DNA of 64,000 bases from Prunella strophiata (taxonomy: Eukaryota; Chordata; Aves; Passeriformes; Prunellidae). The stretch lies in contig JAZBQD010000014.1 in the NCBI GenBank assembly GCA_036583965.1, forward strand, positions 69,239,835 through 69,303,834, given 5' to 3'. Shown here in pieces: positions 8,613 through 59,678 of the stretch; position 1 is the first letter of the stretch; every line of letters begins with the position of its first letter. A program made the translations under genes and the position numbers. The notes beneath the pieces were generated by a model. That model searched no databases. It saw only the letters and a program-made list of their open reading frames with translations, and was not told the origin of the DNA.

Positions 8613-9248
8613 GATAACTGTCAGAACCCAGCACATCCCTCTGGCTGCCCTGGGTGGCTCCAGCCCCTGGCAGGGGGCTCAGAGACCTTGGCACAGAGCC
8701 CAAGACCCCTGTGCCTTTGATCTTGAGCCATGGAGAAAATTACCAACCTTATATGAAGAGTTGCAAGCCACACAAATTAAGTAGAATTATAATAAGTTTC
8801 TCACAGGGTGAAAATATAGAATTTTAGGGTTTTTTAGATAAAGGTTCGGGGGTCAAGATGGAGGAATTTGGGTGTGTTCTGTCCTTCTTTCTCCTTCTTC
8901 ACAGCCTCCATCTTCTGGGTGATGGTGGCACTTTTGGATTGGTTTAGAGTAGAGTTGGACTGTGTAACATGGGTGATAGGTATTGGAAAGTAACTGTAAA
9001 TAATGTACATGTGGTTTTTAGTATAAAAAGACAACACCACCCCAGAGGTGGGCAGTGTGCCTGGGACTGACCTGCTGAACAGACCTGGGCTGGTCAGGGA
9101 GAAAATTTGTTAGATAAGGAAAAATAAACAACCTTGAAAACTGCACAAGAAGACTCCTGACTCCTTCTTTGGTTCTTGGGCCAGAACACAGAGACTCTCA
9201 AACAGATTGGGGTCACCTTGAGCTCCTGAGAGAGCTCTGACAGATAAC
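8613..9248 (+). mobile_element. Solo LTR, family 1 copy A, with 6-bp target duplication
   Basis: The LTR itself is 8619-9242 (624 bp). It begins TGTCAG and ends CTGACA, a perfect terminal inverted repeat. The 6-bp sequence GATAAC flanks it at 8613-8618 and 9243-9248, an exact target-site duplication, which fits ERVK-like integration. Inside are a TATA-like 'agtataaaaagac' near 9020 and an AATAAA near 9122-9128, in the right order for U3-R-U5. No internal viral genes lie on either side, so it is a solo LTR left by LTR-LTR recombination. It shares about 600 bp with copies at 14692, 21226, 35479 and 41676. Confidence 0.93.
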
Positions 9249-14685: not shown

Positions 14686-15339
14686 TGGCAGTGTCAGGGT
14701 TTCATGAGGTTGAGATGACCCCAATATCTGTTAGAGAGTCTCTTTTTCTCCCAGCCCAAGAACCAAAGAAGGAGTCAGGACTCTTTCTCTGCAGTTTCCA
14801 AGGTTGTTTATTTTTCCTTATCTATTACATTCTTTTCCTGACCTGCTGAGGTCCATTCAGCAGGTCAGTCAAAGGCACATCCCTAGGGTATTTTTATCTT
14901 TGTTATATGTTATGTTATACTAGGTTATACTAAAAACTACATGGACATTATTTACAGTTACTTTCCAATACCCATCACCTGTGTTACACAGTCCAGCTCT
15001 ACTCTAAACCAATCCAAAAGTGCCACCATCAACCAGAAGATGGAGGCTGTGAAGAAGGAGAAGGAAGGACAGGACATGCTCAAGTTCTTCCATTTTGCCT
15101 CTTGAACCCCCATTCTAAAAAATCCCAAAATTCTACTTTTCCACCCTGTGACAAACTAACTGTCACTCTACTTAAACTTTCATGGCTTGTAAATCCTCAT
15201 ATAAGGTTGGTAATTTTTTCCATGGCTCAAAATCAAAGGCACAGGGGTCTTGGGCTCTGTGCCAAGGTCTCTGAGCCCCTGCCAGGGGCTGGAGCCACCC
15301 AGGGCAGCCAGAGGGATGTGCTGGGTTCTGGCATGGTAG
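14686..15339 (-). mobile_element. Solo LTR, family 1 copy D
   Basis: Minus-strand relative of the LTR at 8619. On the plus strand it opens with TGTCAG at 14692 and closes with TGGCA at 15333 (the start of the LTR on the minus strand, with TGTCAG mutated to TGCCAG). Flanks TGGCAG (14686-14691) and TGGTAG (15334-15339) form a 5-of-6 target duplication. The polyadenylation and TATA regions align with copy A; 'gttatgttatactagg' near 14905 is a small local expansion not seen in the other copies. Confidence 0.9.
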
Positions 15340-16996: not shown

Positions 16997-17469
16997 GTGG
17001 GTGATGCCTTGTTCAGGCTGAGCTAGGACAGAGGCTGGGCAGAGCTAAAGAATAAAGCTAGGGATTTATTCAAAGGATCTCCTCCATGGATGCACCTTGG
17101 GCAGCACCAGAGCCCAGCCAGGGCTGCACCCAAGATGAACCAAAATGGCCCCAAAATGCACGAGCGCTCCCGGGGTCTCTGCCTTGGATCAGCTCTGCTC
17201 CATTTGCACCTTGCAGTTCATTGTCCCATTCCAGCTTTAGCCCCTGCACTCCCACCCTGCTTGTTTTTCTCTCCTCAGCCCACTGCTGGTTGTGCTCCTG
17301 GGCTGAGATTTGGATCATTTGTCCTTGGTGCCCAGCTGGAGCAGGAATTGTTTTGTCTCCCTGCTCTGTGCACAGAGCTCACCATCCCCTGATGTGAACC
17401 CCAGACCCACACACTAAAGCAGCACAGAATGTGAAAAATGTAAAATCTAAAACCTGAGGCATCATTGGG
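16997..17469 (-). mobile_element. Solo LTR, family 3 copy 1
   Basis: The LTR is 17002-17464 (463 bp). On the plus strand it starts TGATGCC and ends GGCATCA, a perfect 7-bp inverted terminus. The flanking pentamers GTGGG and TTGGG agree at four of five positions. A minus-strand AATAAA lies at 17065-17070. It matches a plus-strand relative at 23345-23807 closely over about 400 bp, including the CpG-bearing 'cgagcgctcccggggtctc' near 17160. No internal viral sequence is attached. Confidence 0.85.
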
Positions 17470-21225: not shown

Positions 21226-21838
21226 TCTCAGGTTTCTGTGGTTATGATGGTTTCTGAGGTATTAGAAGGTTTTTTTTTCTCCTAGCCTTGTGACTGAAGA
21301 AGTTGAGATTTGTAATTTCAGCTTTTCAAGGTTGTTTATTTTTTCTTATCTATCACATTCTTTCTCTGACCTGCTGAGATCTGTCCAGCAGGTTGGGTTG
21401 AGGCACATTCCCAGCCTTTAGGGTGATGTTAACTTTTTATACTAAGAACTACGTGTACTTTATTTACAATAATTTTCCAATACTTATCACCTATGTTAGA
21501 CAGTCTGTCTCTACTCTAAACTAATCAAAAAGTGTTACTATCATAGTAGAAGATGGAGGATAAGAAGAAGAAGGATAGGATACACTTAGATTCTTCTATT
21601 TTGCTTCTTGAACCCCCATTCTAAAACTCAAAAATTCTACTTCTTTACCCTGTGATAAATTAACTATCAATTTACTCAAACTTTTGTGGCTTGTAAATCT
21701 TCACACAAACTTGGTAATTTTTTCCATGGACTAAAGTTGAAGGCACAGGTGTTTTTGACTCTGTGTTAAGGTCTTTGAGCTCTTTGCCAGGGTCTCAAAT
21801 CATCCAGGGCAGCCAGAGGAATGTCCTGGGTCCTGACA
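21226..21838 (-). mobile_element. Solo LTR, family 1 copy E, inserted in an ATC array
   Basis: Diverged minus-strand copy of the family 1 LTR. On the plus strand it starts TCTCAG and ends CCTGACA. Its flanks are ATCATC (21220-21225) and ATGATC (21839-21844), a 5-of-6 match, and both flanks belong to the same ATC microsatellite. It carries many more substitutions than copies A, B and C, so it is the oldest of the five. Confidence 0.85.
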
Positions 21839-23344: not shown

Positions 23345-23807
23345 ATCCCCAGATATTTCAGCTTTCATATTTTTCACATTCTGTGCTGCTTTTGTGTGTA
23401 GCTCTGAGCTTCATATGAAGTGTTAGCAAGTTCTCTTCACAGAACAGGGAGACAAAACAATTCCTTCTCCAGCTTGAGACCAAGGACAACTATTATAAGC
23501 TCCAGGCCCAAAAAGCATAAACTATGGTGAATTGAAGAGAGAAAAACAAGCAGGGTGGGAGTGCAGGGGCTAAAGCTGGAATGGGACAATGAACTGCAAG
23601 GTGCAAATGGAGCAGAGCTGATCCAAGGCAGAGACCCCGGGAGCGCTCGTGCATTTTGGGGCCATTTTGGTTCATCTTGGGTGCAGCCCTGGCTGGGCTC
23701 TGCTGCTGCCCAAGGTGCATCCATGGAGGAGATCCTTTCAATAAATTCCTGCTTTATTCTTTAACTCTGCCCAGCCTCTGTTCTAGCTCAGCCTTCTCCA
23801 GGCATCA
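23345..23807 (+). mobile_element. LTR, family 3 copy 2
   Basis: Plus-strand relative of 17002-17464. It ends CCAGGCATCA at 23807 and carries AATAAA at 23740-23745. The 5' end is eroded: the expected TGATGCC start is not visible and homology begins near 'tcagctttcatatttttcac'. A local change at 23400-23440 ('cttcatatgaagtg') is not shared with copy 1. No internal viral sequence is attached. Confidence 0.8.
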
Positions 23808-32500: not shown

Positions 32501-33280
32501 CATGGCTTTGTACTCCTTGCTGCTGGATGTTAATTTTAATTTACAGTCACTTATTCAGTTCCCCTTCAGCAGAGTGGCTGGCTCTGCTCCTAAAGGCCAG
32601 GACAATGAGGGAAGGGGAGAAAGTCACCTCAGGCAGGGACAGGAGGGGTGTGGAGCAGATCCCTGGGGATCCCATTCTTCTGGTCCCTCCTTTCTCTGTG
32701 TTTACATTGGGAATTTGATTGTCCAGATGGAGGAGCTTTCAAACCCTACTGGAGGAGAGGATGACATTTCCCAGCTGCTCCTAAATAAAAAGAAAAAAAA
32801 AAAAACTCAAGGAAGGAAGAGGAAAATTACTGATTAATCATGTCTGGCCCACGGGGTAACAATTATCATGTTAATTGGGGAAGAGTCAACAGTGAGGAAA
32901 TCAGGACAAGATCACCTGGTCTGCTGCCAGCCAGTTTCCACTTCCTAGGAGATAACTCCTGCCAGTTTTGGGGACACAGGCCACCTGTGCAGGGTCAGGT
33001 CTGGAGCCACCCCATCAGAGCTGCAGGTAAGGGAATGGAGAGCTCTGGTGGGTTGTGATTTTTGCTGGGGTCCTTCGTTGTCCTTCCTGGGATGCTGGAA
33101 AGCTGGAAGTGACAATGTTCCAGGTGGGAACATCTCAGTGCAGTGCTGGGCAGGAGCTGAGGGGGTGGATCAGCCCGAGGTGATGGATGTGTCCCTGAGG
33201 TGAGGAGTCAGCAGATGTGTCAGCCTGGTTGCTCCCAGCATTGGCCATCACACATTAACTCACAGGGAAAGGGTTTGTTA
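29581..33280. other. Long unique non-coding stretch
   Basis: About 3.7 kb with no recognised gene. 31600-32540 is AT-rich and full of TAAT/ATTA homeodomain-type cores (for example 'ttaattaaaa' at 31921, 'ataattattggcac' near 32005, 'caattaatcaattgg' near 32176), which makes it a candidate regulatory or conserved block. A small duplication of 'actaataactatctc' lies at 31732-31762. 32787-32804 is A-rich. Confidence 0.4.
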
Positions 33281-33333
33281 TCACAGAATCAAGGAGTGGT
33301 TTGGGTGGGAAGGGACCTTAAAGGGACCTGGCA
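33281..33333 (-). mobile_element. CR1 3' tip abutting the inverted duplication
   Basis: 'tcacagaatcaaggagtgg' followed by 'tttgggtgggaagggacctt' is a minus-strand CR1 3' tip. It stops abruptly at 33334, where the left arm of the inverted duplication begins. The right arm lacks this CR1, so the junction is asymmetric. Confidence 0.75.
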
Positions 33334-33668
33334 CTGTCCAGCTGATTAAAGGCGTTTCTCTGACATTCCCCATGAGCTCATTTTCTATGCCTCATTAGCA
33401 TTCGGATAATTTGCATACCCAGGGTGCACCGCGCGCCAGCAGCACTGCCCCCATCAAAATTCCCATTTTTGCCGTGCAAACACCCGGGTGGGGACACGGG
33501 ACTAGTGTGACCCTGCCAGGGGACCGGGCTGGGGACAGCACGGGTCACACCGGGAGGTGGCAGAGCTCACCGTGTCCTGCACAGGGACAGCTGTGGGGCC
33601 GGGCTCTGGGGAGGGAGCAGAGGGCAAGCTCCGGTTTCTCTTCAGAGCGAACAAATCTTTCGCCTTTT
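33334..33668 (+). repeat. Left arm, CpG-rich outer segment of inverted duplication
   Basis: 335 bp that reappear reverse-complemented at 39871-40205 with only about four substitutions, roughly 99% identity by eye. It is unlike the surrounding DNA: about 16 CpGs, including 'caccgcgcgccagc' at 33427, and an octamer ATTTGCAT at 33409-33416. I recognise no protein or known repeat in it. It could be the promoter or LTR-like part of an unrecognised element, or simply a duplicated CpG-rich regulatory piece. Confidence 0.9.
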
Positions 33669-34445
33669 ACTAAAGATTTCCGTGGAGAGGAACAGTCACG
33701 AGTGAATAGGAATTTTTTGTGGCTCTGCTTTAGCAGAGCTGCCCTTTCATTGGTCAAAAAATAGAATACTTCTGGGTGAGTGTTGTGGGGAAGGGGGTTA
33801 AGCTGTATTGAGTTGTAGCCCAACCTTTTCTAGCTTTGAGGATTGAGTTATTGGGGTTTAACAATGGGATCCTCCACCCTGAACCCACTGCAGAGGAGGC
33901 TGCAGAGCCTGGAGCCCCTCTGCTCTGCACCTGGGGGTGCTCACCTGCATTGGCCATCACACATTAACTCATGGGGAAAGGATTTGTTATCGTTAAATCA
34001 TGCAATGGTTTGGGTGGGAAGGGACCTTAAAGATCATCCAGTTCCAACCCCCTACTAAAGATTTCCGTGGAGAAGAACAGTCACGAGTGAACAGGAATTT
34101 TTTGTGGCTCTGCTATAGCAGAGCTGCTCTTTTGCTGGTCAAAAAATAGAGTGATTTTTGGTGAGTGTTGCAGGGAAGGGAGATGGTTTGGGTTGGGTGG
34201 GAATCCAACCTATTCTAGCATTGGGGAATGAGTTATTGGGTTTAGCAATGGGATCCTCCACCCTGGACCCATTGCAGTGATTCCAGAGGAGGCTGCAGAG
34301 CCTGGAGCCCCTCTGCTCTGCACCTGGGGGTGCTCACCTGCATTGGCCATCACACATTAACTCATGGGGAAAGGATTTGTTATCATAAAATCATGCAATG
34401 GTTTGGCTGGGAAGGGACCTTAAAGATCATCCAGTTCCAACCCCC
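33669..34445 (+). repeat. Left array, about two copies of the 392-bp unit
   Basis: Units begin 'actaaagatttccgtggag' at about 33669 and 34054 and carry the landmark 'gggggtgctcacctgc' ending at 33948 and 34341 (393 bp apart). Each unit runs: a hairpin 'gctctgct..agcagagc'; 'ttgggtgagtg'-like AT/GT sequence; a sense CR1 fragment ('ggaggctgcagagcctggag', 'cccctctgctctgcacctg'); 'attggccatcacacattaac'; and an antisense CR1 3' tip ('gggaagggaccttaaagatc'). The last unit runs without a break into a longer CR1 fragment at 34393-34530. Confidence 0.9.
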
Positions 34446-34530
34446 TGCCATGGGCAGAGACACTTTCCACTACCCCAAGCTGCTCCAAACCCTGTCCAAC
34501 CTGGCCTTGGACATTCCAGGGATCCAGCTG
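34393..34530 (-). mobile_element. CR1 LINE fragment at inner end of left array
   Basis: Minus-strand CR1: 'gggaagggaccttaaagatc', 'ctgccatgggcagagacac', 'aagctgctccaaaccctgtc', 'caacctggccttggacattc'. The tandem array merges into it, so the array unit's CR1 tip was copied from, or recombined with, this type of element. Confidence 0.85.
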
Positions 34531-35478
34531 CTCTGAGCACCCTGTTCATTGTGATGTGATGAAACTATGACATCTTCCTGCTACAACAGGAAGAAGAAAA
34601 CACCACCAGGTTGTATTTCTTTAATAACTAAACCCAGTTTTGTTTATTCCTAGAGTGTCTACAAGTTCTGTTGCCTGTCCCCACAGTCCCTCATTCCCTT
34701 AGGGATGCTCTTTTCAGAGCATTCATTGCTTCTAGAAGTTATAGTTTCTCACAATGGGGTGCAGGGTTAGGGTTTTCCCTAAACAGGTATCCTGCTTTTC
34801 CTTGCACTGCAGGATAAACTCCATGGCTTACAAGCCTGCAGGAAAACATGGAATTTTTCCATAGAAAATGGAGAGCTCCTCTTCACATTGCTGGTGAATG
34901 AGAGCTCTTCTTCACATTTCTGGTCAGGGATCCTCAAACATATGGGACCTCATGTTTTTATAGATATATAAATCTACCCAGCACAAAGGGGAGAGATGGA
35001 TAGCAGCAATATGAGATGTGATTGAGTGTCCTGAGCCTCTTCCACTTCAGCTGGATTGTTTGGTCTCATTTCAAAAGTGTCAGTGACGGGCAGACCAAAA
35101 AGGAACAAGATCTGTGAATATGAGCAAGTTCTGAGGATGCATTTTTTAAGAGGAAAAAAATCTTTCCTGTCATCCACCTCTGGCTTCTGCTGGACTACAT
35201 GTGGGAAGTAGCCAGACATGGGCAAAATATTGAGTCCTGGTAAGGCTGTGCTGGCTGGCAGCTAGGAATGTCATGCCCCTCAACGTGTTGTTTTCCAAGT
35301 CTGATGCCAGGAATGAGTTTTAGTGACCTGGAGTGTGACAAGAATTTGCCTGAGTGAGCATTGTCCCTGTTGGGACAGCACTGGGCTCGTTTAGTGCAGC
35401 ATCTGCACCTGGAGAATCTGTCCTGTCCTGTCAGATTCCTGCCTGCACAGAGCCACTGGATGGGTGCCCAGGACTGGG
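34531..35478. other. Spacer between inverted arms, unique part
   Basis: No gene or repeat recognised. It is AT-leaning and includes 'tttttatagatatataaatc' near 34954. Confidence 0.4.
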
Positions 35479-36096
35479 TGTCAGAACCCAGCACATCCCT
35501 CTGGCTGCCCTGGATGGCTCCAGCCCCTGGCAGGGGGCTCAGAGGACCTTGGCACAGAGCCCAAGACCCCTGTGCCTTTGATCTGGAGCCATGGAAAAAA
35601 TTACCAACCTTATATGAAGAGTTGCAAGCCACACAAATTAAGTAGAATAATAGTAAGTTTATCACAGGGTGAAAAAGTAGAATTTTAGGGTTTTTTAGAT
35701 AAGGGTTCAGGGGCCAAGATGGAGGAATTTGGGTGTGTTCTGTCCTTCTTTCTTCTTCTTCACAGCCTCCATCTTCTGGGTGATGGTGGCACTTTTGGAT
35801 TGGTTTAGAGTAGAGATGGACTGTGTAACACAGGTGATGGGTATTGTAAAATAACTGTAAATAATGTACAGGTAGTTTTTAGTATAAAAAGATAACACTG
35901 CCCCAGAGGTGGGCAGTGTGCCTTGGACTGACCTGCTGAACAGACCTGGGCTGGGCAGGGGGAAAATCTGTTAGATAAGGAAAAATAAACAACCTTGAAA
36001 ACTGCACAAGAAGCTCCTGACTCCTTTCGGTCTCTTGGGCCAGAACACAGAGACTTTCTAACACATATTGGGGTCATCTTGAGGTACAGAGAGACA
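35479..36096 (+). mobile_element. Solo LTR, family 1 copy B
   Basis: Plus-strand LTR starting TGTCAG at 35479 and matching copy A (8619) nearly base for base over 590 bp, with the TATA-like 'agtataaaaagat' near 35881 and AATAAA near 35984. Its 3' tip is shortened ('acagagagaca' where copy A has 'agagagctctgaca') and no target duplication is visible, so the 3' end may have been altered after insertion. It lies in the spacer of the inverted duplication. Confidence 0.85.
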
Positions 36097-38092
36097 CCTT
36101 CCCTGGGCTCTCTGGGAGGTGAGGCTCAGCTCTCCCTTGGCTCTGAGCCTCCCTGCTCGAGAAGAAAGAGCTGAAGCAAGTCTCCATCTCCTGCACCTCC
36201 TCCTGTGAGCACAGCTTCAGAGGCAGCAGATGGGTCCAGCATGGCAGCAGCACAATCAGAAATAGCTCTGGCACAGCTCCCCCCGTGGTTTCACACTGCC
36301 TCTTCCCTGGCCATGTGGCCAAGCTGCAGGAACTGCTGGAAAAAGTCAACTCCGAGCTTGCAGAGCCAGGATCTCATTAGGCACAGCAGGGAGGAGCAGG
36401 AAAACAAACACCTGGCACCACCAGGTCCCTTCAGCAAGGAGGATTGTGGTGCAAAAGGCAGAGATTTTGGTCTGAGAGGCAAACCCAGCATTTGCAGAGC
36501 ATCCTGCCACCTGCCATGGGCTGGGACTGCCAGGAGGTCTCATTGCAGCCATCAGCTGTGGGGATGACAGGATTTGTGCTGCCAGCTTGGGCTCTGGGCT
36601 GGTCTCAGGGCCTCTGAGGCAGGCCAGGGTGCTGCAAGTGTGCATGAGCAATAAGAGGGGTCTCCTATTAGCACTGACCTTTGAGGATGTGAGAGTGAAA
36701 AGAGCAGAAAAGAAATATTTAAAAAAAATATCAAGTCCAAGCCAGCAGAATGTCTCTGGTTTATTCATTGCTGCCTGATTTCTTATTTACTATTATTTAT
36801 TTACTTGAAGGCGGGGTGACCTTCAAAGCTGCTGCTTGTCACTGGCAGCCTCCTGGCTGCAGGTTGCATGTTAATTCTGGCTGGGCACTGACACTGAGCA
36901 TCCCAGGCAGCCTGTGGGGGAATCTCTGCCCCTTAATTTTAGTGCTGGTTAAAAGCAGGAGTCTGCTTTGGGTAGCCAGGCTGGGTTTGGAAGCCTAAAT
37001 CATAAAAAGCTGTAGGGAAAATGTGAGCCTGGTGATGCAAATTCCCCTCATTTTTTGTTCCACCTCATCCCACTCACATTGAGGGATGAGTGGCTCTGAC
37101 TCTGTGCCATAGAGGGACTGTTTGCAGGCCCCACAGCAGATGTGGGAATGTTCTCTCCCTCCAAACTCTGCCTTTGCAGAGAACAATCATCCACCTCCCA
37201 CAGATCCAATGCAACACAGTTTATTTTCATTTTTTAGCAGCCTGTAAACCCAAGCATCCTTTCCTCCAGCCTTTCCCACTCACCAGGGATGTCCACACAA
37301 GGTGATTTTAAAGCCTCCAGAACAGCAAGGTCACCACAACCACAGCCACAGATGCATCCAAATTGTGTCTGTGGAGAATGACCAAGAGATGGTGACAAGA
37401 GGAGATCCAGGGCAGGAGCCAAAGGAGAAAGATGGGATGTCTGTGGTGTTTGCAGCACTGCCAAGATGCCAGCAATGATTTGTTGGCAGCCAAACATTTC
37501 AAGCCTGGACCTTGCAAGCCAGGCATCTCATTCAGGGTCTGTAGTGTGCCCTGGGCACTTCCCACTCATGACAATTCCCTTTATTATTGCAAATAAATTC
37601 AGTGCTCTGCTCAGTGTCCCAATTAATGCAGCAGGACCTGACTCTGGGCTGTTGTGCACACACATAAAAAACATTTCCCTGTGCTCTCAGACAGGTGCCA
37701 CACTTCACCCAGACATGGAGGGGTTTTCTGGGAGGGAAGTTTGTCACCCTGGGTCTCACTTGTGCAAAAAGAAAATTTTGCTCCTTCCAAAAGCAGGGGA
37801 AATGAAGGCAGGAAATGGAGGCATGCAAAAAATAAAGGCAGGAAACTCATTTCTTGAAGGAGAGGGGTGTGAATGGTCTAAAGTCTTCCTTTTCTAAACT
37901 TAAAAACTAATTATGGTGAAAATGGTCCCAAAGATTGGGAACATTGAATTCAAGATAAAGGTGCCACTTTGGTAAAAACACGACCTTAACTTGGCAAATC
38001 TTACCCATAATCTTGGATGTACATCCCTTTAGGAGGAGCTATTCCTTTCCCTTGGCACCAGGGGCTGCTTCAGAGGAAAGAACAGAGCCAGA
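36097..38092. other. Spacer between inverted arms, unique part
   Basis: No defended gene. 36276-36380 contains a short frame with a helix-like Lys-Leu-Gln-Glu-Leu-Leu-Glu-Lys stretch ending in a stop, but there is no splice or homology support. 36650-36830 is AT-rich and could be regulatory. Confidence 0.4.
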
Positions 38093-38470
38093 GAATGGTT
38101 TGGGTTGGAAGGGACCTTAAAGATCATCCAGTGCCACCTCTGCCATGGGCAGGGACACCTCCCACTGTCCCAGGCTGCTCCAAGCCCCATCCAACCTGGC
38201 CTTGGGCATTCCAGGGATGCAGGGGCATCCCCACCCTCATAGGGAAGAATTTCTACCCAATATTCCCCCTAAATCTCCTGGTTTTAGTTTAAAAACATTT
38301 CTCTTCATACTATCAGTATCTGCTGGGGTAGAAAGTCACACACCTCCTGTTACATCAGCCCCTCCTGGCAGGAGCTCTGAGCTCTCCCTGGAGATTTCCC
38401 TTCTGCAGGTGAGCACCCCCAGGTGCAGAGCAGAGGGGCTCCAGGCTCTGCAGCCTCCTCTGGAACCACT
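38093..38470 (-). mobile_element. CR1 LINE fragment at inner end of right array
   Basis: Minus-strand CR1, about 380 bp: 'atggtttgggttggaaggga', 'tctgccatgggcagggacac', 'gctgctccaagccccatcc', 'catagggaagaatttc', and the more 5' part 'cttctgcaggtgagcacccc', 'cagaggggctccaggctctg'. The last part (38405 onward) is also the start of the 392-bp tandem unit, so the array is rooted in this CR1. Confidence 0.85.
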
Positions 38471-39870
38471 GCAAAGGGTCCAGGGTGGAGGATCCCATTG
38501 CTAAACCCAGTAACTCATTCCCCAAAGCTAGAAAAGGCTGGATTCCCACCCAACCCAAACTTAATCCCCTTTCCTGCAATTCTCTCCAAGATCCACTCTA
38601 TTTTTGACCAACAAAGAGCAGCTCTGCTAAAGCAGAGCCACAAAAAATTCCTGTTCACTTGTGACTGTTCTTCTCCACGGAAATCTTTAGTAGGGGGTTG
38701 GAACTGGATGATCTTTAAGGTCCCTTCCCACCCAAACCATTCCATGATTTAATGATAACAAATCCTTTCCCCATGAGTTAATGTGTGATGGCCAATGCAG
38801 GTGAGCACCCCCAGGTGCAGAGCAGAGGGGCTCCAGGCTCTGCAGCCTCCTCTGGAACCACTGCAAAGGGTCCAGGGTGGAGGATCCCATTGCTAAACCC
38901 AGTAACTCATTCCCCAAAGCTAGAAAAGGTTGGGCTACAACTCAATACAGCTTAACCCCCTTCCCCACAACACTCACCCAAAAGTATTCTATTTTTGACC
39001 AAGAAAAGAGGAGCTCTGCTAAAGCAGAGCCACAAAAAATTCCAATTCACTCGTGACTGTTCCTCTCCACGGAAATCTTTAGTAGGGGGTTGGAACTGGA
39101 TGATCTTTAAGGTCCCTTCCCACCCAAACCATTCCATGATTTAATGATAACAAATCCTTTCCCCATGAGTTAATGTGTGATGGCCAATGCAGGTGAGCAC
39201 CCCCAGGTGCAGAGCAGAGGGGCTCCAGGCTCTGCAGCCTCCTCTGGAACCACTGCAGTGGGTTGACGATGGAGGATCCCATTGCTAAACCCCAATAAAT
39301 CAATCCTCAAAGCTAGAAAAGGTTGGGCTACAACTCAATACAGCTTAACCCCCTTCCCCACAACACTCACCCAAAAGTATTCTATTTTTGACCAATGAAA
39401 GGGCAGCTCTGCTAAAGCAGAGCCACAAAAAATTCTTGTTCACTTGTGACTGTTCCTCTCCACGGAAATCTTTAGTAGGGGGTTGGAACTGGATGATCTT
39501 TAAGGTCCCTTCCCACCCAAACCATTCCATGATTTAACGATAACAAATCCTTTCCCCATGAGTTAATGTGTGATGGCCAATGCAGGTGAGCACCCCCAGG
39601 TGCAGAGCAGAGGGGCTCCAGGCTCTGCAGCCTCCTCTGGAACCACTGCAATGGGTTGAGGGTGGAGGATCCCATTGTTAAACCCCAATAACTCAATCCT
39701 CAAAGCTAGAAAAGGTTGGGCTACAACTCAATACAGCTTAACCCCCTTCCCCACCACACTCACCCAAAACTGCTCTATTTTTTGACCAATGAAAGGGCAG
39801 CTCTGCTAAAGCAGAGCCACAAAAAATTCCTATTCACTCGTGACTGTTCCTCTCCACGGAAATCTTTAGT
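38405..39870 (-). repeat. Right array, about 3.75 copies of the 392-bp unit
   Basis: Units start at 38405, 38797, 39189 and 39582 (landmark 'gcaggtgagcacccccagg'), giving periods of 392, 392 and 393 bp. The last is cut short at 39870, where the CpG-rich arm begins. The array is reverse-complementary to the left array. Units differ by scattered changes (for example 'ttaatgataac' against 'ttaacgataac', and 'aagaaaagaggagc' in unit 2). The outer two units resemble the left array more than the inner two. Confidence 0.92.
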
Positions 39871-40205
39871 AAAAGGCGAAAGATTTGTTCGCTCTGAAGA
39901 GAAACCGGAGCTTGCCCTCCGCTCCCTCCCCAGAGCCCGGCCCCACAGCTGTCCCTGTGCAGGACACGGTGAGCTCTGCCACCTCCCGGTGTGACCCGTG
40001 CTGTCCCCAGCCCGGTCCCCTGGCAGGGTCACACCAGTCCCGTGTTCCCACCCGGGTGTTTGCACGGCAAAAATGGGAATTTTGATGGGGGCAGTGCTGC
40101 TGGCGCGCGGTGCACCCTGGGTATGCAAATTAGCCGAATGCTAATGAGGCATAGAAAATGAGCTCATGGGGAATGTCAGAGAAACGCCTTTAATCAGCTG
40201 GACAG
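39871..40205 (-). repeat. Right arm, CpG-rich outer segment of inverted duplication
   Basis: Reverse complement of 33334-33668, differing at about four positions over 335 bp; about 17 CpGs. It carries the same octamer, ATGCAAAT on this strand, near 40123. Outside it, 40206-40300 continues moderately CpG-rich ('cacggggtgg', 'ggtgtcggggg') before the duplicated block at 40301. Confidence 0.9.
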
Positions 40206-40300
40206 CCTCAGGGACACGGGGTGGCTCAGCTCTTTGCTGTTCCTGGCCAGCACAGAGTCCCAGAGGGGTTTGGGTGGGGAGGTGTCGGGGGTCTCTCAGT
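40206..40300. other. Right flank of the inverted duplication
   Basis: 95 bp with no counterpart beside the left arm. The inverted homology ends sharply at 40205. Confidence 0.5.
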
Positions 40301-40437
40301 GTCACCTGTCCCTCTGTCCCTCTGGGTGACACTCAGGGACCCCAGCCAGCCCTGGCACAGCAGACAGCAGTGGGGCACTCACCAGTGCCCTGGGGATGGA
40401 TGGCACCCAGGCTGTTTGCCCAGCAGCAGGAGAGACT
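40301..40437 (-). repeat. Duplicated block P, copy 1
   Basis: 137 bp ('gtcacctgtccctctgtccc' through 'gagagactcaggc') repeated at 41079-41222 with few differences. Orientation is given by its association with block Q. Identity unknown; possibly part of an LTR element. Confidence 0.75.
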
Positions 40438-40735
40438 CAGGCAACACTGGATGTCCTGGGTTCTGACATCTCCCCCTCCTGTTTGAACCAAAAACCATTT
40501 CTTTTGTGGCTTGGCACTGAAAGATGCACAGCAAAATGAGCAGAAAAAGTCACAAGCCCTACTAATATATAAAATAGGTATTTTCAAAAGTTTGACATCT
40601 TGGTGCATTTCTATAAATGCTGTGATTTGGGGTAACATCTATCATTTCAGGTTTTGTTTGTGTCACTCCCAAGAAACTGAACTTTATACAAAAATTCATT
40701 CTCACTGAAGAGAGAATTTCCAGTTCCTGTGGCAG
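40438..40735 (-). mobile_element. ERV 3' fragment inside block P-Q copy 1: polypurine tract and LTR start
   Basis: About 298 bp present between blocks P and Q in copy 1 but absent from copy 2. On the minus strand it ends with a polypurine tract 'aggagggggaga' directly followed by TGTCAGAACCCAGGACATC, which is the start of the family 1 LTR. In retroviruses a polypurine tract immediately precedes the 3' LTR, so this is a sliver of ERV internal 3' DNA with the first ~20 bp of its LTR. The rest (40500-40735) has no recognisable coding remnant. Confidence 0.65.
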
Positions 40736-41076
40736 TGAAGGAAAGGGGCTGACTCTCAGCAAGGGTTAATCCAAGGTTTTATTCAGGAACTCACAGGAGC
40801 TCCTGCACCTCAGGGGCCTCATGCTCAGAGCCCTGGGAGAGGTGCCAAGGTTACATTGAAAGGGAGGTGGACACCAAAAGCAGATAACATTCACTGAGCA
40901 ATAAAGGATCCCAAGGGATGTGCACTAAAATATGGACATTTGGGATGGCACATGGGGTAACACCTGAGGGGTTGAACCCTGGCCTCTGACTGATCACACC
41001 ACGACTTGGACAGAACTTTTTAGATCTTGGGATGGGATGCTGAGTGATTGACAGAGCCAGGGCAGGGAGTTGGGAA
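40736..41076 (-). repeat. Duplicated block Q, copy 1
   Basis: 341 bp repeated at 41234-41574 with roughly 20 differences. On the minus strand it contains AATAAA near 40778-40785 ('cctgaataaaaccttgg') and another AATAAA/TTTATT pair near 40901, like the R region of an LTR. I cannot name the family. P and Q together could be an LTR plus adjoining sequence. Confidence 0.75.
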
Positions 41077-41078
41077 CT

Positions 41079-41222
41079 GTCACCTGTCCCTCTGTCCCTC
41101 TGAGTGCCACTCAGGGACCCCAGCCAGCCCTGGCACAGCAGACAGCAGTGGGGCACTCACCAGTGCCCTGGGGCAGCCAGGGATGGCAGCCAGGCTGTTT
41201 GCCCAGCAGCAGGAGAGACTGA
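41079..41222 (-). repeat. Duplicated block P, copy 2
   Basis: Second copy of 40301-40437, with a 9-bp local change ('ggggcagccagggatggcag') and no LTR-start insertion after it. Confidence 0.75.
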
Positions 41223-41233
41223 GGTGACAAGGG

Positions 41234-41574
41234 TGAAGGAAAGGGGCTGACTCTCAGCAAGGGTTAATCCAAGGTTTTATTCAGGAGCTCACAGGAGCTC
41301 CTGCACCTCAGGGGCCTCATGCTCAGAGCCCTGGAGAGGTGCCAAGGTTACATTGAAAGGGAGGTGGACACCAAAAGCAGATAACATTCACTGAGCAATA
41401 AAGGATCCCAAGGGATGTACACTAAAATATGGACATTTGGGATGGCACATGGGGTAACACCTGAGGGGTTGAACCCTGGCCTCTGACTGATCACAGGACA
41501 ACTTGGACTGAACTTTCCAGAACTTGGGATGGGATGCTGAGTGATTGCAGAGAGCCAGGGCAGGGAGTTGGGAA
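41234..41574 (-). repeat. Duplicated block Q, copy 2
   Basis: Second copy of 40736-41076. It begins only 11 bp after block P copy 2, so the uninterrupted arrangement here is probably ancestral. Confidence 0.75.
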
Positions 41575-41675: not shown

Positions 41676-42287
41676 TCTCAGGAGCTTGAGATGACCCTGA
41701 TCTGTTTGAGAGTCTCTGTGTCCCAGCCTGAGAACCAAGGAAGGAATCAGGAGTCTTCTTGTGCAGTTTGCAAGATTGTTTATTTTTCCTTATCTAACAA
41801 ATTTTCTCCCTGACCAGCCCAGGTCTGTTCAGCAGGTCAGTCCCAGGCACACTGCCCACCTCTGGGGTGGTGTTGTCTTTTTATACTAAAAACTACCTGT
41901 ACATTATTTACAGTTATTTTCCAATACCTATCACCTGTGTTACACAGCCCAACTCTACTCTAAACCAATCCAAAAGTGCCACCATCACCCAGAAGATGGA
42001 GGCTGTGAAGAAGGAGAAAGAAGGACAGAACACACCCAAATTCCTCCATCTTGATCCCCAACCCTCATTCTAAAAAACCCCAAAATTCTACTTTTCCACC
42101 CTATGATAAACTAACTCTTACTCTACTTATTTTTTGTGGCTTGCAACTCCTCATATAAGGTTGGTAATTTTCTCCATGGCTCAGAATCAAAGGCACAGGG
42201 GTCTTGGGCTCTGTGCCAAGGTCTCTGAGCCCCTGCCAGGGGCTGGAGCCATCCAGGGCAGCCAGAGGGATGTGCTGGGTTCTGACA
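41676..42287 (-). mobile_element. LTR, family 1 copy C
   Basis: Minus-strand LTR. On the plus strand it starts TCTCAG near 41676 and ends TTCTGACA at 42287. It is nearly identical to copies A and B through the promoter, polyadenylation and U3 portions. The 6-bp flanks (GCAACA and GGGAGG) do not match, so one end may have been rearranged. It directly abuts a truncated CR1 at 42288. Confidence 0.85.
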
Positions 42288-48410: not shown

Positions 48411-49102
48411 GATAGTGTTTTGGTTTGAAAAGAAAACTGCTAAGGAAGTTAGGAGCCTTCCTTGAAATGGAAAATGTAAACCCCCTCCTTCTGAATTATT
48501 GTAATTTTGAAATTAAGGGGCTCTCAGGAAAAGGTATGGGAATAGGAATAACAGTTCTTTACTAGGAAAATTAAAAATTACAAATGCAATAGTACAAAAA
48601 AGAAAACAAACCACTGCCAGAGTGAGAGCAGGAGCTGACCCCCTGTGTGTCAGGGTGGTGGCACAGTGCCATGCCATGGTGGCTGCAGCCCTCCTGCAGG
48701 GCCAGGGCTGGTTCTGCTGGAGCAGGGATCCTGCACAAGGGGGGAGTTTTCCTCTGCAGCTCCAGGGCTGCTGCTCTCCCTCTGGGAATGCAGCAGAGGA
48801 GAAGAAAGCTGCTCCTCTGGGAATGCAGCAGTGGGCAAAGGCTGCTGGGGTGTTCCAGGGTCAGATTCTATCCAGGTAGGAATGCTTGGCTCCTGCCCTG
48901 GGCAGAGCATCTCCCAGTGGGATGATGGAATTTGATCAGCCATGCAGGGACACTCCCTGGCCATGGACAGCAGAGATCTCCTGGAGGGAGGATTGGCTGT
49001 GGGAGAGATAAAGAAAAAACTGCCCAGTGAACAGCAGAGAACTGCCCCAGCTCTGACAGGTGGTAAATAGAGTACACACCCAGCTAAACCTGAGACAGAC
49101 AG
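48411..49102 (+). mobile_element. Solo LTR, family 5 copy 1
   Basis: The LTR is 48416-49097 (682 bp), beginning TGTTTTGG and ending CCTGAGACA. Flanks GATAG and GACAG are a 4-of-5 target duplication, the length typical of several ERV classes. It shares nearly its whole length with an inverted copy at 58943-59673: 'aaatggaaaatgtaaacccc', 'ggaataggaataacagttct', 'ggttctgctggagcagggat', 'aactgccccagctctgacag'. No viral genes are attached. Confidence 0.9.
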
Positions 49103-51336
49103 GCTGTGGAGCAGAAGCCTCTGTGTGTGGGTTTTTCTCTGGATCCTTTATCTGCTGCATTTCATGAGCGCGTGTGACTCCATGTGTGGCCTCCCTCAGA
49201 ATTTATTCCCCTGGCTTTTTGATCACAGTAATAATCCCACTGTTAAAAAGGAGCCTTCCCCTTTAAATTCCCCAGTGCCAAGAAATGAACTTTGAAACAT
49301 GAAGGTTAGCAAAGACTTTGGGAACAACTTTGAAAGCAGCTAAGCTGTGAGCGATCTCCGCGTCCTTTAATCAGATGCTCGGCTTTGCAGCTCCAGCCAT
49401 CTTCACGGATTAACTCCCATGAACTTCCTGAACTGCTTTTATGGAAAAGCACATCAAACAGATGACTCTGCTAAGGAGGAATTAATCAATTAAGTAGAAG
49501 CAGGGAGGCCTACTCTCTGCTGAGAAACTGCTCCATGGACACCTTCCCCCTGCCCACCTCCTTCCTTCCGCCTTGTGCCAAGACTTGTTTTGTTTATATT
49601 AGGTGGAAATTGAGTTTTAGATGTAGTTTCACTACACACACAGAGCTTCCTTTCCTGCCATATTTTTTTTTGAGATAAATATGTTTTTTTTCTAATGTGT
49701 AGCTGTGAAATTTTAGGGTCCAGCAGCCTTCAGCTGTCAGAATATTCCTGGTGTGCATTTCCCAGTAAGGCAGACTGAAACATCTTGCACTGTCCTGCAT
49801 GGTGAGTGTTTTCTATCTGCGTGTCCAAGAGAAGATATTTGGGATCTGGCATTTCCAGAGCTATGCCAGAAGCTGGCTGAGTGCCCCAGTAAATCAGTTC
49901 TTTGCTTCTGCCTGGTCTTGGGTGAGTTGTGGAGGCTTGGATTCAATGTCCAGGTTTGACCACATAACAGGTATCTGGCCCAAGCTGGTTTTCCAAGGAT
50001 TTTCTAGTCTCAATGGAGAGAGAGAGGGAGGAGTTTCCAAGGAGAAAATTACCCTTTCCTGAAATAGGGTGTCATGGAGTGGTCACTGGAGGTGTGAAGG
50101 AGGAAACCTGGGTGTCTTGGAGCTCTCATGCTCCTTCATATCATCATAAATATCTGTACCTATTCAGGCCACCCATCAGTCTCCTAAAGTTGGATTCAGA
50201 GTGTTCACCTCCTCTTTGTGTGCCAATACAGGGAAACAAGGAATGCAGGCTCAGATGTCCATTTTTCTTCCCCAGATCATGCTTCTTTTGACTTAAAAAG
50301 GGATCATTCATGGCAGAGAGAGTTATGAAATTATGGTTGTGCTGCAGATGGCATTTAAGGGAAGTTCCTCCCATCTGCTCACTCTCGAGAGTGGAAAATT
50401 CCTGATGTTAAAGATTTTTGTAAAGGGCAAAGAATCTGAATTTTTATTTCTGCGAACATGAATTCTGAGCTTCCATTTCAGCCTTCACAGCCACATGGAC
50501 AACAAGCACGGAGATGCTGTGAAAAAAATTGGGTTTGTGGCCTCTGTAAAAGCAGTTCTGCATTTCTCCTGCTGTTTGCAGCGACCTTCTCCCAGGATAA
50601 AATCTATTCCCAGCTTCAGGAGTACTTGGAGCCCAAGTCACAGCTTTTGTTAACAGGAGAGCTGGAGTTTCTCTTGCAGAAGTGAGATGATTTCTACATT
50701 TCCTTTCAGAAACAATCCTTGTGAGCATGGCTAGGATCAACTGTGGTGTAAGGTCATTCTCTCCCCTGTCACATTCACTCCATCAGATCAAGTGAGGAGG
50801 AGGCAAATTAACACTTCTGTCTCTGGTCCTGAAGGGAGCCTGATCCACAGGAGAGGGTGAGTTTTAACTCTAATTCCCACCCTAAACCAATTCCTGGGCT
50901 ATTTATCCTCATTTTCACTGATGTTAGCACTATCATTTTATTAAGTACCTCTTCATCCTCCCTGGTGCTTACCCCAGGTTTATTTAGGAAAGTGCTTTAA
51001 TACGTGGAAAACATCAATTTTTCAGCTTATTTCCAGCTAGGAAGGTGTTTGAAGTGTGGCTGTGCAGGGTTCAGGTGGCAGGGAGACAGAAATGTGTCAA
51101 AAGAACCAGTTAACATCAAAACTCCTTCACACAGAGATCCCCCCTTCTTTCCAGAGGCTACTTCATCAGGTTCTGTGGGATACCTCTTATTTCTGGATAC
51201 CACAAGAACACCAGTGGTCTAATAATTCCTGCACAGCTCCTTTCCTGCTGTCACCCATCTGGCTCCGTGGATAATTCATGTTTTTGGTTATAGTTTGGGA
51301 TAAAACTCCAGTTTTTCACAGAAACATTAAATCATA
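49103..51336. other. Unique non-coding sequence with a possible conserved block
   Basis: 49200-49500 has balanced composition with a few CpGs ('gagcgatctccgcgtcc' near 49350) and homeodomain-like ATTA cores ('aattaatcaattaag'), unlike its neighbours, and may be a conserved non-coding element. The rest is ordinary. No exon supported. Confidence 0.4.
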
Positions 51337-58937: not shown

Positions 58938-59678
58938 TGTCATGTCTTAGGCTGGAAATGGGGGTGTGTGTTCTATTTGCCATCTGTCAGAGCTGGGGCA
59001 GTTCTCTGCTGTTCACTGGGCAGTTTTCTTTATCTCTCCCACAGCCAATCCTCCCTCCAGGAGATCTCTGCTGTCCATGGCCACTGAGTGTCCCTGCATG
59101 GCTGATCAAATTCCATCATCCCACTGGGAGATGCTCTGCCCAGGGCAGGAGCCAAGCATTCCTGCCTGGATAGAATCTGACCCTGGAACAGCACAGCAGC
59201 CTTTGCCCACTGCTGCATTCCCAGAGGAGCAGCTTTCTTCTCCTCTGCATTCCCAGAGGGAGAGCAGGCCCATCTGCAGCAGCCCTGGAGCTGCAGAGGA
59301 AAACTCCCCCCTTGTGCAGGATCCCTGCTCCAGCAGAACCAGCCCTGGCACTGCAGGAGGGCTGCAGCCACCATGGCATGGGAATGGGACTGTGCCACCA
59401 CCCTGACACACAGGAGGTCAGGGAGAATTCTGATTCTGGCTGTGTTGGTTTGTTTTTTGGTTTTTTTTTTGGTTTTTTTTTTTTTTTTTGTATTATTGCA
59501 TTTGTAATTTTTAATTTTCCTAGTAAAGAACTGTTATTCCTATTCCCATATCTTTGCCTGAGAGCCCCTTACTTTCAAAACTATAACAATTCAGAGGGAG
59601 GGGGTTTACATTTTCCATTTCAGGGAAGGTTTCTGCCTTCCTTAATAGACACCTGTCTGTTTAAACCAAGACATGTCA
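58938..59678 (-). mobile_element. Solo LTR, family 5 copy 2, with exact 5-bp target duplication
   Basis: The LTR is 58943-59673 (731 bp). On the plus strand it starts TGTCTTAGG and ends CCAAGACA. The pentamer TGTCA flanks it exactly at 58938-58942 and 59674-59678. It is the inverted counterpart of 48416-49097, about 50 bp longer owing chiefly to an expanded T/G run at 59448-59490. It is a solo LTR without coding sequence. Confidence 0.93.
59448..59491. repeat. Poly(T) with G interruptions inside LTR
   Basis: T runs separated by GG inside the family 5 LTR. The relative at 48590 has a short A-rich run instead, so this expanded after insertion. Confidence 0.9.

What the first reader, a model, noticed from the sequence alone, without database searches (positions are those of the whole stretch)
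33334..40205. Large inverted duplication with near-identical CpG-rich ends and inward tandem arrays
The 335-bp segment 33334-33668 recurs reverse-complemented at 39871-40205 with only about four substitutions. Inside each arm lies a head-to-tail array of the same 392-bp unit (about two copies left, 3.75 right), in opposite orientations, around a 3.96-kb spacer. The near-identity suggests recent duplication or continuing gene conversion. A transcript crossing it would fold into a long double-stranded RNA, and the DNA could form a large hairpin. I know of no named avian element with this architecture.
Basis: partly seen in the sequence, partly recalled or inferred. Interest (0 to 1): 0.82.

Follow-up and report, generated by a model that had tools for sequence, protein, structure and literature searches.

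The report
Inverted pair of U5 snRNA genes
The two mirror-image ends are two facing copies of the gene for U5, a core RNA of the splicing machinery, each followed by partial copies of itself: a new example of a known kind of gene cluster rather than an unknown element.

Summary
Each arm is a U5 spliceosomal RNA gene (Rfam RF00020): 33626-33739(+) and 39800-39913(-), 97.2 bits each against a gathering score of 40. The RNAs are identical over 114 nt and the genes face each other. The "335-bp CpG-rich segment" is the snRNA promoter plus U5 nt 1-43: octamer at -217, Staf/SPH-like site (15 of 18) at -211, weak PSE-like site (9 of 12) at -59; a 3' box (11 of 12) follows the RNA. The "392-bp unit" is the 3' half of U5, its flank and a CR1-type tail; the four truncated copies share one junction inside U5 loop I. 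In the bird's own 1.05-Gb assembly, 2 of 11 DNA matches include the promoter, both here. Elsewhere are one possible variant gene and four decayed copies. Over the same 279 columns the two full genes' units differ at 7 sites and the innermost truncated ones at 21 (p 0.01), as gene conversion between the genes would give, though other tests are neutral. A known gene family; moderately interesting because this may be most of the bird's U5 supply.

The parts
33336..33625 (+). promoter of left U5 gene
   Evidence: CpG-rich; octamer, Staf-like and PSE-like elements; 4 of 290 differ from the right arm
33409..33416 (+). octamer ATTTGCAT (DSE), -217
33415..33433 (+). Staf/SPH-like site, 15 of 18 consensus positions, -211
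   Evidence: consensus from PMC5493778
33567..33584 (+). PSE-like site, 9 of 12 consensus positions, -59
   Evidence: consensus from PMC5493778; decayed copies elsewhere reach 6-8 of 12 by chance
33626..33739 (+). left U5 snRNA gene, full length
   Evidence: RF00020 97.2 bits, model 1-117; 30 of 30 consensus pairs form
33662..33670 (+). U5 loop I GCCTTTTAC
33711..33719 (+). Sm site AATTTTTTG
33752..33765 (+). 3' box, 11 of 12 consensus positions
33668..34053 (+). first 392-type unit (L0): U5 3' half of the full gene, 3' flank, CR1-type tail
34053..34446 (+). truncated unit L1; U5 nt 43-114 at 34053-34124, no promoter
34447..38403 (.). spacer between the arms; holds a CR1-type fragment 38093-38238 and an LTR-like repeat from 35479
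38404..38692 (-). truncated unit R3; U5 part 38621-38692
38692..39084 (-). truncated unit R2; U5 part 39013-39084; mosaic of the two flank types
39084..39477 (-). truncated unit R1; U5 part 39406-39477
39477..39871 (-). first unit on the right (R0), 3' half of the full right gene and flank
39800..39913 (-). right U5 snRNA gene, full length, identical to the left
   Evidence: RF00020 97.2 bits; 0 of 114 differ
39774..39787 (-). 3' box of right U5 gene
39914..40203 (-). promoter of right U5 gene (octamer 40123-40130, Staf-like 40106-40124, PSE-like 39955-39972)
33227..33323 (+). extra copy of the distal part of the unit outside the left promoter (about 87-89%)

Best explanation
This is a small U5 snRNA gene cluster: two full, convergent U5 genes, identical in the RNA, each with its own Pol II snRNA-type promoter and 3' box, and each followed downstream by promoterless 3'-half copies (one left, three right). 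Each full gene should be read by Pol II from its octamer/Staf enhancer and PSE, cut by Integrator at the 3' box, assembled on the Sm site and used as U5 in splicing. A tandem duplication that began inside U5 loop I and ended inside a CR1-type repeat made the 392-bp unit; the block was then duplicated in inverted orientation; unequal exchange lengthened the right array; gene conversion between the facing arms, with selection on U5, keeps the outer genes alike. Shown: genes, elements, junctions, mosaic pattern. Inferred: expression, the order of the duplications, gene conversion.
For: Rfam U5 full-length in both arms, the only 2 matches over gathering in the window. 30 of 30 Rfam pairs are standard, loop I and Sm site present. 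Octamer 8 of 8, Staf 15 of 18 and 3' box 11 of 12 at fitting distances (consensus; chicken 7SK promoter positions). CpG kept only at promoter and gene. Best two of six U5 family matches in the own genome; 2 of 11 DNA matches include the promoter, both here. The four truncated copies share one U5/CR1-type junction. Over the same 279 columns the outer units L0 and R0 differ at 7 sites, the innermost L1 and R3 at 21 (Fisher p 0.010). R2 switches between the two flank types.
Against: No RNA data. PSE matches only 9 of 12 positions, where three decayed U5 copies reach 6-8. The unconstrained fold (-32.9 kcal/mol) is not the Rfam structure (-24.2), and the shuffle z-score is only -1.71. Zero substitutions in U5 is not significant by itself (hypergeometric 0.12), nor is the longest identical run (p 0.70), so conversion and selection cannot be told apart within U5. 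L1 and R3 may not be strict counterparts, which weakens the conversion argument. An open stop-to-stop frame of 121 aa crosses promoter and U5 in both arms and gave the top codon scores before CpG was capped; it has no Pfam match and is read as a CpG effect.
Confidence: 0.92

Rival explanations
1. Recent inverted duplication alone: near-identity reflects youth, not continuing gene conversion.
For: 12 of 718 differences fit a young duplication; the longest identical run is no longer than chance gives (p 0.70).
Against: The innermost copies L1 and R3, which share one flank type, differ at 21 of 279 sites against 7 of 279 for the outer pair (p 0.010); R2 is a mosaic.
Confidence: 0.35
2. Both copies are silent relics and the working U5 genes lie elsewhere or in unassembled sequence.
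For: 838 contigs, completeness for snRNA genes unknown (control searches unanswered). The best match to a human U5 query is a decayed copy on C149 (96% over 68 nt; the window pair 94% over 66 nt), so a somewhat different U5 may have existed.
Against: Both copies keep RNA, octamer, Staf-like site and 3' box and are the best two of six U5 family matches. The human U5 query found 7 places: the pair, C193 and four decayed copies, no further gene.
Confidence: 0.07
3. An uncharacterised mobile or foldback element that merely captured U5.
For: Inverted-repeat form with arrays inside.
Against: Promoter plus U5 matched nowhere else in the 1.05-Gb assembly; outside this locus only the last part of the unit, a CR1-type tail of 48-66 bp, matched among the 46 listed matches (capped list).
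Confidence: 0.02
4. Assembly artefact (one gene assembled twice in inverted order).
For: No reads available.
Against: Arms differ at 12 of 718 sites plus a 9-column gap, arrays have different copy numbers, and the similarity stops at 33334/40205.
Confidence: 0.03

Closest known systems
U5 spliceosomal RNA genes, RF00020 (human RNU5A-1, B-1, D-1, E-1, F-1)
   Same: Full-length U5 with loop I, Sm site, DSE and 3' box; multicopy family. U5 is already annotated in nearly all of 48 bird genomes (PMC4378963, passages)
   Different: Two identical convergent copies with 3'-half arrays; the human family is described as five paralogs that differ in sequence (PMC12165836, passages). Whether facing U5 pairs are known elsewhere was not established
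Concerted evolution of snRNA genes (primate U2, RNU2)
   Same: Members of a family alike within a genome; stated for multicopy snRNA genes in PMC4291461 (passages)
   Different: RNU2 is named a tandem array in the titles cited there; here an inverted pair
CR1-type avian retrotransposon tail
   Same: The end of the unit matches dispersed places genome-wide; the name CR1 is recalled
   Different: Only this small part of the unit is dispersed

Membership tests
U5 snRNA (RF00020) | covariance model score above gathering over the full model | tested here: met
   97.2 against 40 bits, model 1-117, both copies
U5 snRNA (RF00020) | loop I GCCUUUUAC and Sm site before a 3' stem-loop | tested here: met
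U5 snRNA (RF00020) | consensus secondary structure | tested here: met
   30 of 30 pairs standard, though the unconstrained fold prefers another structure for part of the RNA
Pol II snRNA gene | DSE with octamer and Staf/SPH site near -220 | tested here: met
   octamer 8 of 8 at -217, Staf 15 of 18 at -211. With an 18-letter Staf form the window holds 8 places at 16 and one at 18, so Staf alone is weak; the octamer word occurs 6 times in the window
Pol II snRNA gene | PSE near -55 and no TATA box at -25 | tested here: inconclusive
   9 of 12 at -59; decayed copies reach 6-8. No TATA-like word between PSE and RNA start (by eye)
Pol II snRNA gene | 3' box after the RNA | tested here: met
   11 of 12, starting 12 nt after the RNA end; other U5 matches reach 8-9
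U5 snRNA (RF00020) | transcribed and part of the U5 snRNP | not testable with these tools
   no RNA data
dispersed mobile element | copies of the whole arm at unrelated places in the genome | tested here: not met
   promoter part in 2 of 11 matches, both in this locus

The most novel reading that the evidence does not exclude
This bird's U5 comes almost wholly from one pair of facing, identical genes that correct each other by gene conversion, after its lineage lost a U5 type whose decayed copies are still present; the promoterless 3'-half copies serve as further donor templates or as back-up 3' boxes.
Probability: 0.25. Interest if true: 0.45.

Novelty: new member of a known kind. Interest (0 to 1): 0.22.

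Why it matters
It turns an apparently unknown element into an essential splicing gene locus and accounts for each of its features. If the pair really supplies most U5, it is a compact natural case of concerted evolution between inverted copies, and a warning that masking this locus as a repeat would hide an essential gene. It also shows snRNA-derived truncated and decayed copies in a bird, a group that a review (PMC5493778, passages) names as an exception to the rule that metazoans carry snRNA pseudogenes.

Tried and rejected
Named mobile element: rejected, since the arm is not dispersed. Protein-coding content: Pfam on 10 of the 140 listed frames of 100 aa or more gave two weak matches, both under their cut-offs. 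The highest codon scores lay in the arms themselves; with CpG capped they fell away, and the 121-aa frame of each arm has no Pfam match. Neighbours: plexin exons begin about 66 kb to the right; a left-hand candidate exon of 59 aa matched no family. That the plexin is PLXNA4, and that this is not a human U5 neighbourhood, is recalled, not tested. Viral contigs: 0 exact matches to a U5 pattern. Rfam at gathering found no RNA gene in 110 kb of flank. A check of assembly completeness by U4, U2 and U1 could not be done. Literature: 'U5 snRNA' + chicken + gene cluster (2 papers) and 'U5 snRNA' + zebra finch (1 paper) showed no title on bird U5 gene order; those three papers were not opened. Listings were seen for snRNA gene evolution; of these only PMC4291461, PMC5493778 and PMC4378963 were looked into, by passages. 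No paper was read whole.

Full report
Observation. The inverted pair is real: 33334-34446 aligns to 40205-39084 at 94.4%, with 4 mismatches in the 430 columns 33336-33765, and 0 of 200 single-base shuffles gave even a 20-bp exact inverted match. The arrays have 2.0 and 3.7 copies of a 393-bp period in opposite orientation.

Identity. Rfam gives exactly two matches over gathering in the 64-kb window, both U5 spliceosomal RNA, full-length, 97.2 bits: 33626-33739(+) and 39800-39913(-) (again, where three other matches under their gathering scores are taken as chance). The two are identical over 114 nt. All 30 consensus pairs are standard; loop I and the Sm site are present. Against this, the free fold prefers another pairing for part of the RNA and its z-score is only -1.71; the Rfam match does not rest on it.

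Promoter. Against the consensus printed in PMC5493778 (passages): octamer 8 of 8 at -217, Staf 15 of 18 at -211, PSE 9 of 12 at -59, 3' box 11 of 12 starting 12 nt after the RNA. The same scan on the decayed copies L003, L005 and L006 gave at best octamer 6 of 8, Staf 12, PSE 6-8 and 3' box 8-9, so the PSE is the weakest element. The published chicken 7SK promoter has its octamer at -222 to -215, SPH at -210 to -192 and PSE at -67 to -46 (PMC2235858, passages), so the spacing agrees. CpG observed/expected is 0.44-0.66 here and at most 0.25 in the other windows, as in an unmethylated housekeeping promoter (inference).

Arrays. The repeat unit starts at U5 nt 43, in loop I, runs through the Sm site, 3' stem and 3' box, then 3' flank, and ends in a CR1-type tail. 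The four truncated copies (U5 part starting at 34053+, 38692-, 39084-, 39477-) have the same junction...CAACCCCCT|ACTAAAG..., so they have one origin. Among 46 listed genome matches to the flank, 7 lie in this locus; the other 39 cover only the CR1-type tail (40 of 2485 candidates scored, so a capped list). The flank has two types: L0, R0 and mostly R1 carry one; L1 and R3, the innermost copies of each arm, carry the other; R2 switches from the first to the second. This fits a full-plus-truncated pair that was duplicated as an inverted block, with later unequal exchange on the right. All six units keep a 3' box, one A shorter in R1, R2 and R3.

Homogenisation. L0 and R0 with their promoters differ at 12 of 718 aligned sites plus one 9-column gap; by part: promoter 4 of 290, U5 0 of 114, 3' box zone 0 of 26, next 25 sites 5, next 100 sites 2, rest 1 of 163. 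Over the 279 columns that L0, L1, R0 and R3 all fill, L0 and R0 differ at 7, L1 and R3 at 21 (p 0.010). A mid part picked after looking gives 5 of 140 against 19 of 148 (p 0.005). This favours gene conversion between the outer genes, but the longest-run test was negative (p 0.70) and zero changes in U5 has a chance of 0.12.

Genome. The window lies at C49:69239835-69303834 of a 1.053-Gb, 838-contig assembly. The family search lists 6 U5 matches: the pair (97.2), C149 72.1, C193 70.8, C93 60.8 and 50.0 (46 of 81455 first-look candidates scored, so a lower bound). A 425-nt promoter-plus-U5 query gives 11 matches, 6 in this locus and 5 elsewhere that cover only U5 (7 of 7 candidates scored). A human U5 query gives 7, the pair among them, the best being the decayed C149 copy. 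C149 and two on C93 lack good promoter elements; C227 breaks off inside the 3' half (by eye). C193 sits in a CpG island (observed/expected 1.0) with Staf 14 of 18, PSE 7 of 12 and 3' box 9 of 12 but no octamer, a changed loop I and non-standard pairs: a possible third, variant gene or a pseudogene. Hence the pair is the best U5 candidate in the assembly, but completeness for snRNA genes could not be checked because the control searches did not complete.

Verdict. A new member of a known kind: a U5 snRNA gene cluster with an unusual layout. Whether such facing pairs are described elsewhere was not established by the searches named. The double-stranded RNA and hairpin ideas are not excluded but have no support.

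Noticed in passing
window 35479-36079; copies 8619-9233, 14713-15330, 21319-21838, 41689-42287: About 600-bp dispersed repeat, 77-93% alike, beginning TG and with a TTTCTAACA-like end by eye; probably an LTR of an endogenous retrovirus.
   Followed up: no
window 40300-41076 and 41078-41574: Direct duplication: 40300-40441 against 41078-41224 at 93%, 40735-41076 against 41233-41574 at 96%.
   Followed up: no
L004 / L030 (G000:C193:10047440-10047552): U5-like gene in a CpG island (observed/expected 1.0) with Staf 14 of 18, PSE 7 of 12, 3' box 9 of 12, no octamer and a changed loop I: variant U5 gene or pseudogene.
   Followed up: partly
L003, L005, L006, L017: Four decayed U5 copies whose first bases (..ACTCTGG....TGTATAAATC.. 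in most) look more like the human U5 typed than the window's U5 does, by eye; overall identity is higher only for L003.
   Followed up: partly
window about 48650-49147 and 59030-59533; 17027-17392 and 23437-23760: Two further inverted repeat pairs, seen by eye from matching frames in the ORF list.
   Followed up: no
G000:C49:69345773-69363548 (about 66 kb right of the arms): Plexin cytoplasmic-domain exons on the minus strand.
   Followed up: partly
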